The notes below the pieces were generated by a model. That model had not been told where the DNA came from and did no database searches. It was given only the letters and a program-made list of their open reading frames with translations. Positions 55,090-60,511 of a stretch of 64,000 nucleotides of DNA are shown here, in pieces. This DNA is from an uncultured Bacteriovoracaceae bacterium. Its GTDB lineage: Bacteria > Bdellovibrionota > Bacteriovoracia > Bacteriovoracales > Bacteriovoracaceae. The translations under genes were made by a program, and so were the position numbers. Location of the stretch: assembly GCA_950054155.1 (NCBI GenBank), contig CATLOT010000003.1, positions 62,001 through 126,000 on the forward strand, written 5' to 3'. Position 1 is the first letter of the stretch; the number at the start of each line of letters is the position of its first letter.

Positions 55090-56403
55090 ATGCAGAAGTC
55101 TCTTAACCTCCATAAGCTAATCACAACGGTTTTGATAAGCTTAATAGGTCTTATGTTCTTCTCAAAGCTTAGTTTAAAGTGGACGAAACTCGTACCAAGA
55201 AGCCTCCCACCGCTTATTTTCCAACATGGTATGCATCCCTATATAAACTTTGGTCTTAACTTTTTAGCCTTTCTCATTCTTTTTTTCTATTGGATTAAAA
55301 AGAATAAGCGCTTTGCAACCTCAAAAACCTACTCAGCCTTCACAATTATTCTCTTATTAACTTTGGCAGTTCAAACAATTTCTCAAATTATTTTTGTCAA
55401 CGTTTCATTTTCTCCCTGGTTACAGCTCTCTGGCTTTCTCATGGCCTTCATCCTTATCACAATGTATTCCCTTATTATTCCAAACCTCTTTCCCATTGAA
55501 AAAGCGATCTATTGGATAAGAAATTTTTCCGTTGCTCTTGTTCTCCTGTCCTTACTTCTTCTGCCTCTCTTTTATCCCACCTTTTTTAAAGGGGGTCGCT
55601 TCATTGGTGTCTTTAAGCATATCCCCCATATGGTTTCAGCATCCACTTTCGCTTTTATCTTCCTCATCAGAGACGTCTTTAGACCACGCCCAGCATGGAC
55701 TAGGATGCGACGAAACTTTAATATTTTAGCCCTCTTTTTGATTGCTATCGCCATAATCATGACAAGCACTAAAGCAGCCTTTGTCACCATGGTCATGACC
55801 TTCCTCAGCTCCCTCTTCCTCTTTCCAACCCTCAGAAAAAGTATCGCACTTTTCAAAGTTACCTTTCTCCTCGTCTTCAGCCTCGGTATCCTCCTCTTTG
55901 GCGGCCCTGCCACAAACCTCTTTTATGAAATCACAACAGGGAAAAGATCATTTGGAATGCGAAAAGCTCAAAATGGAATCAAAACCCGCCTCGAAGAGGT
56001 CTATAGAGGTTTGGAATACTTTCAACAAGAACCCCTCTTAGGAAGAGGCTTACTTTATAAATTTATGAGCGGAAAGGGCATTAAGGTCAGTGGCTATAAC
56101 TCTTTCAAAGACCCCCATAACCTTTTTGTGAGCGCTGGTGTAATTGGAGGATGGCCTCTTCTTATTCTCTCTATCATTGGTTATCTTTTGATGATCTATG
56201 GTGCTATTAATGGAATGCTTAGCTCCTCTTTTGATGTTCGGGTTATGGGGATTTTTCTTTTTTCTCATCTTCTTGTTTTTATTATTTATCATGCTCACTT
56301 TTCTCTTGGGGGGCTTGGAGATAGGATGTATTGGCTAGTGTTCGGCTACCTTGCCCTCTTTAAACTGACCCCCAAAGATGGAGTTCAATATAGCAATAAG
56401 TGA
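55090..56403 (+). CDS. O-antigen polymerase/ligase-like protein, 3' end changed by insertion
   Basis: The 437-residue membrane protein has about eleven hydrophobic helices and the Wzy_C block with GRGLLYKFM followed by DPHNLFVSAGVIGG, as in O-antigen ligases and polymerases. The terminal residues FKLTPKDGVQYSNK and the stop are encoded within the left end of the insertion sequence (from 56362), so the native C-terminus has been replaced. The gene probably still encodes a nearly complete protein because only the tail is affected. It is in one operon with the SLBB gene. It would polymerise or transfer a polysaccharide. Confidence 0.75.
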   Translation: MQKSLNLHKLITTVLISLIGLMFFSKLSLKWTKLVPRSLPPLIFQHGMHPYINFGLNFLAFLILFFYWIKKNKRFATSKTYSAFTIILLLTLAVQTISQIIFVNVSFSPWLQLSGFLMAFILITMYSLIIPNLFPIEKAIYWIRNFSVALVLLSLLLLPLFYPTFFKGGRFIGVFKHIPHMVSASTFAFIFLIRDVFRPRPAWTRMRRNFNILALFLIAIAIIMTSTKAAFVTMVMTFLSSLFLFPTLRKSIALFKVTFLLVFSLGILLFGGPATNLFYEITTGKRSFGMRKAQNGIKTRLEEVYRGLEYFQQEPLLGRGLLYKFMSGKGIKVSGYNSFKDPHNLFVSAGVIGGWPLLILSIIGYLLMIYGAINGMLSSSFDVRVMGIFLFSHLLVFIIYHAHFSLGGLGDRMYWLVFGYLALFKLTPKDGVQYSNK

Positions 56404-56442
56404 GCTTTCTTAAATAAATTCCAAGACATATAGCCTAGAAAA

Positions 56443-56468
56443 GGTGCTTCTCTAAACAAGGAAGCACC
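56443..56468 (+). repeat. Hairpin just upstream of transposase start
   Basis: GGTGCTTC and GAAGCACC form an eight-base perfect stem around a ten-base loop, ending two bases before the transposase ATG. A structure here would hide the ribosome-binding region, a known way of limiting transposase expression from passing transcripts. No ribosome-binding site is visible outside it. Confidence 0.6.
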
Positions 56469-56470
56469 CT

Positions 56471-57313
56471 ATGTGTCCCCACTGCCATTCAACTGACCAT
56501 CTCATTAAAAGAGGTACTTATCGCCGCCCATCAGATCGTAAAAAAATTCAACGATTTCACTGTAAGAAATGCAATAAAGGGCACTCTTCGCAAACTCATT
56601 CATATGATTACCGACAACGTAAAAGACATATTAATCAAATGGTTTTTAGGCTTTACAGTAAGGGCAACTCTGAGCGTGCAATCGCACAAATCATTGGTGT
56701 GAATAAAAAAACTATCGCTCGGCGAGTAACTCCTTTCGCAAATTGTGCAAGAAAACACTTAGAAAAAATGAGAGCTGAGACAGCCGACATAACGGAGATC
56801 GTTTTCGATGAAATGGAAAGTTTTGAGCATACCAAACTAAAACCTCTGACAATTCCACTGGCTGTCGAAAAACATACTCGAAAGATCCTTGCTTATGACG
56901 TCGGAGAGATAGCCGCAAAGGGCCCTTTAGCACGCTTAAGTATAAAAAAGTATGGAAAAATAAAGTGCCAAAGACGAAAAGTTCTAGACTCTCTCTTTCG
57001 ACAACTACACCATGTTGCCCATCCTCGTTGTAACTTCTCTTCAGACGAATCTCCCCATTACCCAGGTACACTCCGAAGATACTTCAAAGATGCACAACAC
57101 CAGCAATTTAAAGGACGATCTGCTTCAATTGTTGGCCAGGGCGAAATGAAAAAAGGCGGCTTCGACCCACTATTTTCATTGAACCAAACTGCGGCAATGA
57201 TAAGGGACAATATTAAACGCCTTACTCGACGAACCTGGTGCACAACCAAGCGCATCGATCGCCTGTCAGATTATTTGGCAATCTATGCTTTTTACCATAA
57301 TCAAATAATTTAG
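56471..57313 (+). CDS. IS1-like DDE transposase with N-terminal zinc ribbon
   Basis: The 280-residue protein starts with a zinc ribbon (MCPHCHSTDHL with FHCKKCNKG), followed by a helix-turn-helix region (SERAIAQIIGVNKKTIARR), then a DDE-like core: IVFDEMESFEHTK, a SSDESPHYPG segment and a helical end with RIDRLSDYLAIYAFYHN. The order and wording parallel IS1 InsAB, here as one frame. No frameshift is needed. It is the only gene of the insertion sequence. Confidence 0.85.
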   Translation: MCPHCHSTDHLIKRGTYRRPSDRKKIQRFHCKKCNKGHSSQTHSYDYRQRKRHINQMVFRLYSKGNSERAIAQIIGVNKKTIARRVTPFANCARKHLEKMRAETADITEIVFDEMESFEHTKLKPLTIPLAVEKHTRKILAYDVGEIAAKGPLARLSIKKYGKIKCQRRKVLDSLFRQLHHVAHPRCNFSSDESPHYPGTLRRYFKDAQHQQFKGRSASIVGQGEMKKGGFDPLFSLNQTAAMIRDNIKRLTRRTWCTTKRIDRLSDYLAIYAFYHNQII

Positions 57314-57443
57314 GGCACGACAAGACCAAGGCTCTTTAATGCCTACTAACTCCATTTTACGGGGTCAGTTTGAATATTTTACAGGGCTCTCCCTACATTC
57401 ATTTGTTTAAGATATATTTCCCGCAAAAGGCGGCAGGAAATTT

Positions 57444-57560
57444 ATGGAACCAACTCAAAGAGCTAGACTAAAACTCAAAATACAATTAAAAAAACAAGAC
57501 TACGCGATCTTTGTGATTCTATCACTTATCGTCCTCATCAGTAATATTCCTCAATTATAA
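57444..57560 (+). CDS. Single-helix membrane peptide of 38 residues
   Basis: An AGGAAATTT ribosome-binding site precedes ATG at 57444, and 38 codons run to TAA at 57558-57560. The product has a basic first half (ARLKLKIQLKKQDY) and a transmembrane segment (AIFVILSLIVLISNI). It lies between the insertion sequence and the secreted-protein gene. Could be a small membrane regulator or a toxin-like peptide; no antitoxin is seen. The overall coding look is good but the short length makes chance possible. Confidence 0.5.
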   Translation: MEPTQRARLKLKIQLKKQDYAIFVILSLIVLISNIPQL

Positions 57561-57577
57561 AGAGTTTTAATACTCTT

Positions 57578-57964
57578 CTAATAGTCTTTACAATACCAAT
57601 CGAGAGAATGGACTTTAAAGTTAGGGAGTCTAACGAATGACTTGTATTTCCCATTTTCAGGAAAAACTCTGTCAATTCTCACTCGATAATTTCCTGTCGT
57701 AAAAAGAAGCACTCGTCCCTGGTATTTTTCAATGAGGTTTAACTTTTTATAGAAAGTCTCCTCTTCGCCGTTAAAAATATAAGGTACTTCTACTTCGAAA
57801 AACTCGGTACGACCAAGTTTTGACTCAACAATAAATAACTCTTCAACTCTCTCATAGTTCCCAAAGTTCAAACAATGGAAGATTCTCTCACGATCAATGT
57901 TAAGGCCTTTTCCTTCAATAAATGGGCTTACCAATAGCAAAAATAGGACAAAATTAACTTTCAT
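57578..57964 (-). CDS. Small secreted protein expressed from inverted-repeat element
   Basis: The frame is open from 58024, but the ATG at 57964 (preceded by AAGGGG seven bases upstream) gives 128 residues with a signal peptide (MKVNFVLFLLLVSPFIEGKG). The mature domain is basic, with Cys at HCLNFG and at the end YCKDY. Not recognised. The start codon lies in the left arm of the 205-bp inverted-repeat element, and its leader is identical to that of the thioredoxin gene on the other side. Confidence 0.65.
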   Translation of the reverse strand: MKVNFVLFLLLVSPFIEGKGLNIDRERIFHCLNFGNYERVEELFIVESKLGRTEFFEVEVPYIFNGEEETFYKKLNLIEKYQGRVLLFTTGNYRVRIDRVFPENGKYKSFVRLPNFKVHSLDWYCKDY

Positions 57965-58166
57965 AAACTGACCCCTTAAAATGGTGATAAAAAGTAGAAG
58001 ATCCCTTAATAAACGCTCTTTCAAGCATTTAAACTCGTTTCAAGAGTGTGAGAAAAACTATCCATGTATCTATTTTAGTTAATTTTATGTAATTATAAAG
58101 CCTTAAAATTATTTAGGTTTTTCTTTATTAATTAAATTTATATCCATTTTAAGGGGTCAGTTTATG
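57962..58166. mobile_element. Miniature inverted-repeat element related to the adjacent insertion sequence
   Basis: Perfect 23-bp inverted repeats, CATAAACTGACCCC plus TTAAAATGG at 57962-57984 and the inverted copy at 58144-58166, bound an AT-rich core of 159 bases with no coding sequence. The repeat matches the right end of the neighbouring insertion sequence at 19 of 20 positions and the left end at 17 of 20. It therefore looks like a non-autonomous derivative (MITE). Each arm carries AAGGGG and the ATG of the outward gene, so the element also serves as a divergent leader. No target duplication was found. Confidence 0.7.
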
Positions 58167-58592
58167 GAGTGCCTAACTGTTGAGAATTTTGAACAAGTTG
58201 TGAATCAAGAAGAAGGCCTCTTCATCATCAAGTTCTCCTCCCCAACCTGCGCCCCCTGCAAATCAATGGCACCAGTTCTAAAAAAGTTAGAACAAAATAA
58301 TAGTGGTGTAAATTTCTACGAAATAGATACAATGCAAAGCCCCGAACTCGCGGCACACTTTAACGTAAGAGGGGTGCCCTACATTGCTTTTTGCGAAAAC
58401 CGAGAAGTCATTTATGATTTTACTGGACTCACCCCAATAGGAAGCCTTCAGTACGTTATCAATAATATTAACGATGCCTATTATCGTGAATATGGTGAGT
58501 TTAAAACTGAAGAAGAGGCTAAGAATTATTGGTTCGAACTTACTCTCGCCTTTATAGTTCTTATTTTTATTCTTGCCCTCTTTCTCTTGTAA
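58164..58592 (+). CDS. Membrane-anchored thioredoxin-like protein
   Basis: The 142-residue protein has a thioredoxin fold with FIIKFSSPTCAPCKSMAP (Cys29-Ala-Pro-Cys32), VRGVPYIAFCEN with the cis-Pro, and a C-terminal transmembrane helix (WFELTLAFIVLIFILALFLL). The redox domain has no signal peptide, so it would face the cytoplasm with a C-terminal anchor. It probably reduces or exchanges disulphides of cytoplasmic partners at the membrane. It starts in the right arm of the inverted-repeat element, with AAGGGG as ribosome-binding site. Confidence 0.8.
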   Translation: MECLTVENFEQVVNQEEGLFIIKFSSPTCAPCKSMAPVLKKLEQNNSGVNFYEIDTMQSPELAAHFNVRGVPYIAFCENREVIYDFTGLTPIGSLQYVINNINDAYYREYGEFKTEEEAKNYWFELTLAFIVLIFILALFLL

Positions 58593-58660: not shown

Positions 58661-60511
58661 TTGAAGGTCTTAATTGTTGAAGAAGATAGTCAAATAAGAG
58701 ATTATCTCTCCATGCTTCTTGAAGCGGGTCTCGAGTGTGAAATCATCGAAGCCAGCTCTGGAAATGAAGCCGTCACCATTTTTGAATTTGAAGAGGATAT
58801 TGACCTCGTTATAAGTGAAGTTCTAATGAAGGGTGGAGGTGGGCACCTTATTGTCGATTACCTTGACGAGAACAATATTACCATCCCTTTTATTTGGTTG
58901 TCTCATCAACAAAATAAAGAAGTCCAAGTAGTAAAAGAAGTACTTAAGAGAGACCCTCTTAATGCTTTTATTTGTAAGCCATTTAAAGATACCGACTTTC
59001 TTCCCATCATTGAAAATGTTTTAGCGAGCTTGCCCGTAAAAGAAGAAAGCCAGCAGAGTGACTTCGATAAAGCTCAAGCGCAGGGTAACCAACAAGAGAG
59101 GCAAAGCCACGAAGGCATTAAACAATCTGATAGAAGAGAAAACTCATCTCGCTACGAAGATCTATACGCTAGAGATAAGAAGAAAGCCCTTGAAGAGGGG
59201 GATGCAGATTGGAGTATAGGCCTTAAAAGAAAGAACATTGACGACGAAGCTGCGGACTATTCTTTAAAAGTAAAAAATAAGTCCCAAGAACAAGAAGCAG
59301 ATTGGGATCTTAAAAATAGAAGCGAAGCTTCTGAGCAAGAGGCTGATTGGGATCTTAAGAATAAAGGCAATGCTTCTGAAGAAGAGGCCGACTGGGATCT
59401 TAAAAATAAAAGCGAAGCTTCTGAGCAAGAGGCCGACTGGGATCTTAGGAATAAAAGCGAAGCTTCTGAGGAAGAGGCTGACTGGGATCTTAAGAATAAA
59501 GGCGAAGCTTCTGAGGAAGAGGCTGATTGGAGCCTTAAAAAGAAGAAAGCCTCTTTGGAGGATAATGTTGAAGGCTATAAGAAAATTAAGATTAAGCGAT
59601 TTTTGAATTTTTCGACTTTAGTGTGTGGTGCCTATATTAAACTTGGCAAAGCGAAAATGGTCCGCATTATTGGAGAGGGAAAACCCTATGGGCAGGAGCT
59701 TATTGAGAAGTATCTTGATAAGGGGATCGAGTTTCTATTTGTGGAGGATCAAGATTACAAAAGATTTACGCTGCAATTCTCAGATTTAGTAAGCAGTAGA
59801 CTGACCCTGGCTCAGAAATTTAACGACGAAATTAAAAGTGTTGCAGAACTCGCGGCCTTTGAGAGCACTCGTCAATTGGCTCGGGAGTTTGGTGTAAGCG
59901 AAATTGCGGCAGAAAAAGTCAAAGAGAGTGTTGAGTCCAACCTCAAAAGTCTCGCCAAAAAGCCCAACCTTGAGGCGCTTTTACAGAGAATTCTTCGAGG
60001 CGGTGATTATATCTCAGAGCGTAGTTTACTTGTCAGTCATTTTGCGGGGCAGATATGTCTGAACACCAGCTGGTCTTCTGATGAGACTTTGCAGAAACTC
60101 TCGATGGCGGCGCTGATGCATGATATCGCTCTTGAGGAGAATAGACTTGCGAAAATATCAAGCCTCTCAAAGGCAACTCAGCTTACCGAGGAGGATAAAA
60201 GGCTAATTAAAGAACATCCAGGTCAAGCCGCTAAAATAATATCTGAGGGTGAAAGTGTTTTCTCTGATGTTGAATCCATCATTATTCAGCATCATGAGAA
60301 GCCTGATCAATCGGGCTTTCCAAGGGGTCTAGGCTCTCTTTCCATCTCTCCCCTAAGCTGTATCTTTATCATTGCCAGTGAGTTTGCTTATGAGGTCTAT
60401 GGTAAAAAGCCCTCAGACATTGATATGGCGGCCATAAAAGAAAAATTCAATGAGCAATTCTCTTCAGGAAATTTTAAAAAGCCCTTACAAGCCTTTCTCG
60501 CAGCCTTCTAG
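58661..60511 (+). CDS. HD-GYP protein with diverged receiver and tandem-repeat linker
   Basis: The 616-residue protein starts at TTG 58661 with AAGGAG before it. Residues 1-125 are a receiver domain, but the phospho-acceptor position reads VISEVLMKGG, so Glu53 replaces Asp; this may lock it in an active-like state or make it a pseudo-receiver. Residues about 180-300 are a low-complexity linker with six 15-residue repeats (EADWDLKNKSEASEQ type). The C-terminal half is an HD-GYP-like domain with His487-Asp488, HHE at 544-546 and GFP at 552-554 (GYP variant), so cyclic-di-GMP hydrolysis is plausible but the diverged motifs make it uncertain. Confidence 0.8.
   Translation: MKVLIVEEDSQIRDYLSMLLEAGLECEIIEASSGNEAVTIFEFEEDIDLVISEVLMKGGGGHLIVDYLDENNITIPFIWLSHQQNKEVQVVKEVLKRDPLNAFICKPFKDTDFLPIIENVLASLPVKEESQQSDFDKAQAQGNQQERQSHEGIKQSDRRENSSRYEDLYARDKKKALEEGDADWSIGLKRKNIDDEAADYSLKVKNKSQEQEADWDLKNRSEASEQEADWDLKNKGNASEEEADWDLKNKSEASEQEADWDLRNKSEASEEEADWDLKNKGEASEEEADWSLKKKKASLEDNVEGYKKIKIKRFLNFSTLVCGAYIKLGKAKMVRIIGEGKPYGQELIEKYLDKGIEFLFVEDQDYKRFTLQFSDLVSSRLTLAQKFNDEIKSVAELAAFESTRQLAREFGVSEIAAEKVKESVESNLKSLAKKPNLEALLQRILRGGDYISERSLLVSHFAGQICLNTSWSSDETLQKLSMAALMHDIALEENRLAKISSLSKATQLTEEDKRLIKEHPGQAAKIISEGESVFSDVESIIIQHHEKPDQSGFPRGLGSLSISPLSCIFIIASEFAYEVYGKKPSDIDMAAIKEKFNEQFSSGNFKKPLQAFLAAF
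59294..59563 (+). repeat. 45-bp tandem repeats in HD-GYP gene linker
   Basis: Six consecutive 45-bp units (starting at 59294, 59339, 59384, 59429, 59474 and 59519) encode 15-residue repeats of the EADWDLKNKSEASE type. The upstream DADWSIGLK and AADYSLKV segments are older, decayed copies. Near-identity of the DNA shows recent expansion, so copy number is expected to vary between strains. Confidence 0.9.

What the first reader, a model, noticed from the sequence alone, without database searches (positions are those of the whole stretch)
57962..58166. Inverted-repeat arms supply ribosome-binding sites and start codons to two divergent genes
Both arms read AAGGGG, seven bases, ATG, so the thioredoxin gene and the secreted-protein gene begin with the same leader. 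Either the element placed itself so that each flanking gene uses its ends, or it is a symmetrical regulatory structure. The 159-base core could hold divergent promoters.
Basis: seen in the sequence. Interest (0 to 1): 0.65.

Follow-up and report, generated by a model that had tools for sequence, protein, structure and literature searches.

The report
Tiny mobile element feeding two genes
A 199-base mobile-element remnant sits exactly between the start codons of two oppositely oriented genes in a marine predatory-bacterium relative, and its matching ends appear to act as the ribosome-binding sites of both genes; it is a tidy case of a known kind of element rewiring its neighbours.

Summary
A perfect 23-nt inverted repeat (57962-57984 / 58144-58166) gives both genes the leader AAGGGG-TCAGTTT-ATG. 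The repeat without the ATG is the terminal inverted repeat of a small mobile element, 57965-58163 (199 bp). I found 14 such elements (199-205 bp) in this genome. Their ends match a ~1-kb IS1-like insertion sequence, one copy of which lies in the window at 56362-57371. The ATGs are not element sequence: both are conserved native starts of the flanking genes. In three congeners the two genes lie on different contigs, and no element was seen near them. The window copy has no target-site duplication. So this element probably marks a junction that joined two loci and replaced both leaders. Its ends are stronger Shine-Dalgarno sites than almost all ortholog leaders. Tips of the family tend to be followed by A-A/T-A/G, so an ATG at a tip is a modest surprise; two conserved starts on one element is the odd part. 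Promoters in the core are inferred, not shown. Predicted read-through RNA would fold the arms together and hide both sites. This is a new member of a known kind (MITE).

The parts
57965..58163 (.). MITE-like element, 199 bp tip to tip, AT-rich (77%) core, no transposase
   Evidence: Tips and arms match 13 other 199-205 bp elements of the genome; nhmmer model of 17 other elements finds 57965-58162, E=5e-6, mostly through the arms
57965..57984 (-). left terminal inverted repeat; its outward strand carries AAGGGG, the Shine-Dalgarno-like site of the secreted-protein gene
58144..58163 (+). right terminal inverted repeat; carries AAGGGG at 58151-58156, the Shine-Dalgarno-like site of the thioredoxin gene
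57985..58143 (.). 159-nt core, inferred to hold the promoter(s) of both genes; one promoter-like site wholly inside it (58099-58072, - strand, towards the secreted-protein gene)
   Evidence: 3 sites in the region against 1.6 expected, so weak; core found once in the genome
57578..57964 (-). gene for a 128-aa protein with a signal-peptide-like start; native start codon flush with the left tip
   Evidence: Orthologs in congeners share this start
58164..58592 (+). thioredoxin-domain protein, 142 aa, with a hydrophobic C-terminus; native start codon flush with the right tip
   Evidence: PF00085 E=8e-21; start conserved in orthologs
56362..57371 (+). full IS1-like insertion sequence (1010 bp) with the same ends; right arm CCATTTTACGGGGTCAGTTT; candidate helper for the element
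56471..57313 (+). single-ORF transposase, 280 aa
   Evidence: NCBIfam transpos_IS1 67 bits, E=1.6e-18, below the curated cut-off of 100; three other full copies in the genome at 82-83% identity

Best explanation
The 57965-58163 stretch is a non-autonomous mobile element (MITE) whose ends are recognised by the resident IS1-like transposase. A rearrangement at this element (transposase-made deletion or inversion starting at a tip, or recombination between two copies) brought two formerly separate genes together, with one native start codon flush at each tip. Both genes lost their own promoter and leader. Their Shine-Dalgarno sites are now the element's ends (AAGGGG, 7 nt from ATG), and their promoters most likely lie in the AT-rich core. 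Shown: element family, shared ends, conserved native starts, separate loci in relatives, missing target-site duplication, Shine-Dalgarno strength (computed). Inferred: helper transposase, the rearrangement route, promoters in the core, translation from these starts.
For: The arm motif has 31 exact matches in the genome and 0 of the reversed-pattern control (own row). 14 elements of 199-205 bp and 4 full IS copies share the ends. An exact 11-bp target duplication flanks one element (C8b) and one member of each tandem pair. Of 23 close thioredoxin orthologs, 16 have a start codon at aligned residue 1 and the other 7 start 1-3 codons upstream by eye. 3 secreted-protein orthologs (L171-L173) start at the same residue. 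G001, G002 and G003 carry both genes on different contigs; one search found the secreted gene in only 1 of 30 thioredoxin loci, the window's own. No arm stands next to any ortholog start (by eye). The window copy has 4 of 11 target-duplication matches against a background mean of 3.0. Leaders -7.6 kcal/mol.
Against: No transcript or protein data. Promoter-like sites in the region are not enriched. The core resembles other members only weakly (best: one G006 element, z 4.4; the 16 others below 2.3). No genome of the same species without the element was available, and the reciprocal junction was not found among the flanks compiled. In predicted RNAs starting in the core the GGGG is only partly free. 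The transposase does not reach the IS1 model's cut-off.
Confidence: 0.72

Rival explanations
1. Simple insertion: the two genes were already divergent neighbours in the direct ancestor and the element hopped in between, with the flanking duplication since decayed.
For: Only distant congeners could be compared. Several other elements of the genome also lack a recognisable duplication. The family prefers A-[AT]-[AG] at its tips.
Against: In the three congeners that have both genes they are on different contigs. The flanks show no duplication although both are constrained coding starts: 4 of 11 matches. A simple insertion would need the two ATGs to lie a few bases apart before insertion.
Confidence: 0.15
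2. Pure coincidence without function: the ends happen to abut ATGs because of target preference, and the genes are expressed from elsewhere or hardly at all.
For: Tips are followed by A in 65% and by A or T at the second base in 85% of 48 tips; ATG at 5 of 46 other tips against 2.7 expected. ATG-flush tips of C2, C8c, C39 and G006-C2 open only short frames.
Against: Both ATGs are the conserved starts of intact genes, and nothing else on the same strand near them can serve as leader.
Confidence: 0.1
3. Assembly artefact: the assembler joined two loci through a repeat.
For: The genome is a draft of 61 contigs and several IS copies end contigs.
Against: The core occurs once in the genome; further hits of a 231-nt query are short pieces, the best of them arms, so there is no long repeat to mis-join.
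Confidence: 0.04
4. Invertible promoter switch: recombination between the two perfect 23-nt arms flips a one-directional promoter and so alternates the two genes.
For: Perfect arms; the only promoter-like site wholly inside the core points one way. Inversion between terminal repeats of an insertion sequence is the topic of PMC3004938 (title and abstract start seen in the listing); Correia inversion is stated in PMC10969869 (passage).
Against: No recombinase gene is evident next to it apart from the IS transposase. Identical arms are common in G006 elements too.
Confidence: 0.04

Closest known systems
MITEAba12 of Acinetobacter/Moraxella (PMC6382973, passages read)
   Same: Small IS-derived element without genes; reported putative outward promoters in both orientations; in some copies the terminal repeat supplies the first codons (MQQS) of the neighbouring gene.
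   Different: There the start codon lies in the repeat; here the genes keep their own start codon and the repeat supplies the Shine-Dalgarno, at both ends of one copy. Sequence relation not tested.
Correia elements of Neisseria (PMC10969869, passages read)
   Same: Small inverted-repeat elements near genes, with promoters that can drive neighbours.
   Different: No sequence relation was looked for; no promoter is shown here.
IS1 family insertion sequences
   Same: Resident transposase matches the NCBIfam IS1 model; IS of about 1 kb with inverted ends.
   Different: Score below the curated cut-off; one long ORF; 11-bp target duplication in the family (8-9 bp for IS1 is recalled).

Membership tests
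MITE (non-autonomous IS derivative) | Terminal inverted repeats shared with a transposase-bearing element of the same genome | tested here: met
MITE (non-autonomous IS derivative) | Short (<~600 bp), no transposase gene | tested here: met
   199 bp; no ORF of 60 aa lies inside it
MITE (non-autonomous IS derivative) | Several copies in the genome | tested here: met
   14 elements of 199-205 bp; but the window core itself is single-copy and only weakly like others
MITE (non-autonomous IS derivative) | Target-site duplication | tested here: inconclusive
   Exact 11 bp in C8b, and around one member of each tandem pair (C2, C9); absent at the window copy, 4 of 11
MITE (non-autonomous IS derivative) | Moved by the resident transposase | not testable with these tools
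   needs a transposition assay
IS1 family (the neighbouring IS) | Transposase reaches the curated IS1 model cut-off | tested here: not met
   67.3 bits against 100, E=1.6e-18
IS1 family (the neighbouring IS) | Catalytic acidic residues | not tested
   Only conservation among six relatives was aligned; no solved relative by sequence
Invertible promoter (inverton) | Both orientations of the core seen | not testable with these tools
   no reads available

The most novel reading that the evidence does not exclude
The element works as a portable two-sided expression cassette with a built-in lock. Transcripts that start in its core carry one arm and are translated from it. Any transcript that reads in from outside carries both arms, which pair over 20 bp and hide the Shine-Dalgarno site, so each gene responds only to the element's own promoters. 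This would resemble the hairpin lock that some insertion sequences (IS10, IS50; recalled) use to silence read-through into their transposase, turned outward onto host genes.
Probability: 0.15. Interest if true: 0.6.

Novelty: new member of a known kind. Interest (0 to 1): 0.38.

Why it matters
If translation does start from the element's ends, this is a natural example of transposon ends doubling as ribosome-binding sites, so that an element that wipes out a gene's leader also replaces it, on both sides at once. It suggests a testable reason why such short elements can be tolerated right next to start codons.

Tried and rejected
Rfam on 57300-58300: no match up to E=1. Composite-transposon idea (IS + secreted gene + element as one unit, 56362-58163): the outer flanks show no duplication (by eye). 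A general habit of the family to sit flush on start codons: rejected, because most flush ATGs open short frames and the Dus-like gene at C1 has its conserved start 18 nt further in. Core as an internally deleted IS: no similarity beyond 9-13 nt words. Synteny of either gene in relatives: none of the neighbours is shared among the congeners compared, so no direct before/after picture (loci of 4 secreted-gene and 4 thioredoxin orthologs). Solved structures for the transposase: none up to E=1. Papers: four searches for MITE or IS ends supplying ribosome-binding sites or promoters gave MITEAba12 as the nearest; this does not show that nothing is in print. One search for MITEs or insertion sequences in Bdellovibrio-like bacteria gave 2 papers, neither on this by title and abstract start. 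One search on invertible promoters gave, among the 8 of 25 listed, only the MITE review on MITEs.

Full report
What is there. The inverted repeat is real: 23 nt perfect, 30 nt at 93%, far beyond shuffles (longest 18 in 1000). The folded element is 5.9 standard deviations more stable than shuffles, as any such repeat would be. The genes start flush at its two tips.

What it is. The arm without ATG (CCATTTTAAGGGGTCAGTTT) is the end of a transposon family. A first search found 13 near matches in the genome and 0 in the reversed control. A pattern of the arm gave 31 exact matches in the genome and 0 in the control, and 79 against 28 with up to two mismatches. Pairing them gave 14 elements of 199-205 bp, two pairs of them in tandem, and four full IS copies of 1010-1011 bp. 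The full IS at 56362-57371 is 593 nt from the element; its right arm shares the TTTTA variant with the window element. Its transposase matches the NCBIfam IS1 model below cut-off. The family uses an 11-bp target duplication: exact in C8b, and exact around one member of each tandem pair; two more copies show 8 and 7 of 11. Most copies show none, the window copy included. Related elements occur in G006, a congener; a scan of genome contigs with the transposase gave 4 loci, two of them from a Halobacteriovoraceae metagenome genome, PASP01. In the order, 14 of 129 genomes had an exact arm match, some of them probably chance.

The start codons. Thioredoxin matches were found in 110 of 116 genomes at E<=0.001, many of them other thioredoxins; 23 close ones (E<=2e-39) were read. 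16 of the 23 have a start codon at aligned residue 1; I left the other 7 out of the leader comparison because their start is 1-3 codons upstream. The secreted protein has relatives in 10 other genomes of 116 (one of these is weak), and L171, L172 and L173 begin at the same residue. So both ATGs predate the element. An in-frame TTG at 58024 could give the secreted protein 20 more residues; I consider this less likely.

Two loci joined. G001, G002 and G003 have both genes, on different contigs; G005 has only the secreted one and G006 only the thioredoxin. The secreted gene was found next to the thioredoxin only in the window's genome (1 of 30 loci). With no duplication at the window copy, a rearrangement at the element is the best account. 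The element's core is unique in the genome, which argues against a mis-join.

Leaders. Binding to the 16S tail was scored with ViennaRNA duplexes. Both leaders give -7.6 kcal/mol; the median of 47 window genes is -3.3, with 8 as strong or stronger, and 1.5% of 400 random sites reach it. Among 16 thioredoxin orthologs the median is -3.6 and 1 is stronger; of 3 secreted-protein orthologs none is.

Promoters. Because the genes diverge and the tips touch the ATGs, a promoter on the same strand must be in the element or far upstream. The scan gave 3 sites against 1.6 expected, one of them wholly inside the core. This is weak. Read-through from the transposase gene (same strand as the thioredoxin) is possible; in such RNA, and in RNA starting at a tip, the Shine-Dalgarno is fully paired for both genes, while most starts inside the core leave it partly open. 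The exception is a thioredoxin RNA starting at 58000, which is also closed, and in open cases the GGGG itself is still mostly paired. This is prediction only.

How surprising is ATG at a tip? In 48 tips compiled from G000 and G006 the first bases are A 65%, A/T 85%, A/G 77%. ATG occurs 7 times, 2 of them here; without the window element it is 5 of 46 against 2.7 expected from composition, about p=0.13 by hand. I left out 4 inner tips of the tandem pairs, 7 contig-edge IS ends without a locus, the two ends of the G006 IS seen as L195, and the ends in other genomes. C1 abuts an ATG upstream of a dihydrouridine synthase-like gene (name recalled from its sequence), but the conserved start is 18 nt further in. 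So only the window copy is flush with supported native starts, on both sides. Selection for a working leader after the old one was lost would favour that geometry; this is inference.

Compared with what is known. MITEs that bring promoters are well described (PMC10969869, passages), and MITEAba12 repeats can supply first codons (PMC6382973, passages). In the review, the words 'ribosome' and 'start codon' do not occur in the main text. The case here is a new member of that kind, with the Shine-Dalgarno supplied at both ends.

Noticed in passing
55090-56403: The O-antigen-ligase-like gene (Wzy_C) runs into the IS: its last 13 codons and stop are read from the IS left end (from 56362).
   Followed up: partly
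58661-60511: The response-regulator/HD protein holds a run of about six near-identical repeats around EASEQEADWDLKNK between its two domains.
   Followed up: no
L103 and L108: Two tandem pairs of the element, with exactly 11 bp (the target duplication) between the copies; in each pair only one outer flank carries the duplication.
   Followed up: partly
L105-L113, L180-L184: Elements of nearly constant length (192-205 bp) with conserved arms but in several cases unrelated cores.
   Followed up: partly
window 58000-58009: The core holds a second copy of the inner arm (GATCCCTTAA), which can also pair with the thioredoxin Shine-Dalgarno.
   Followed up: no
L187-L190 (G021): A related genus has shorter elements of about 155 bp with one similar arm and one different arm (CCATTCTTGTCAGGCAGTTT type).
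   Followed up: no
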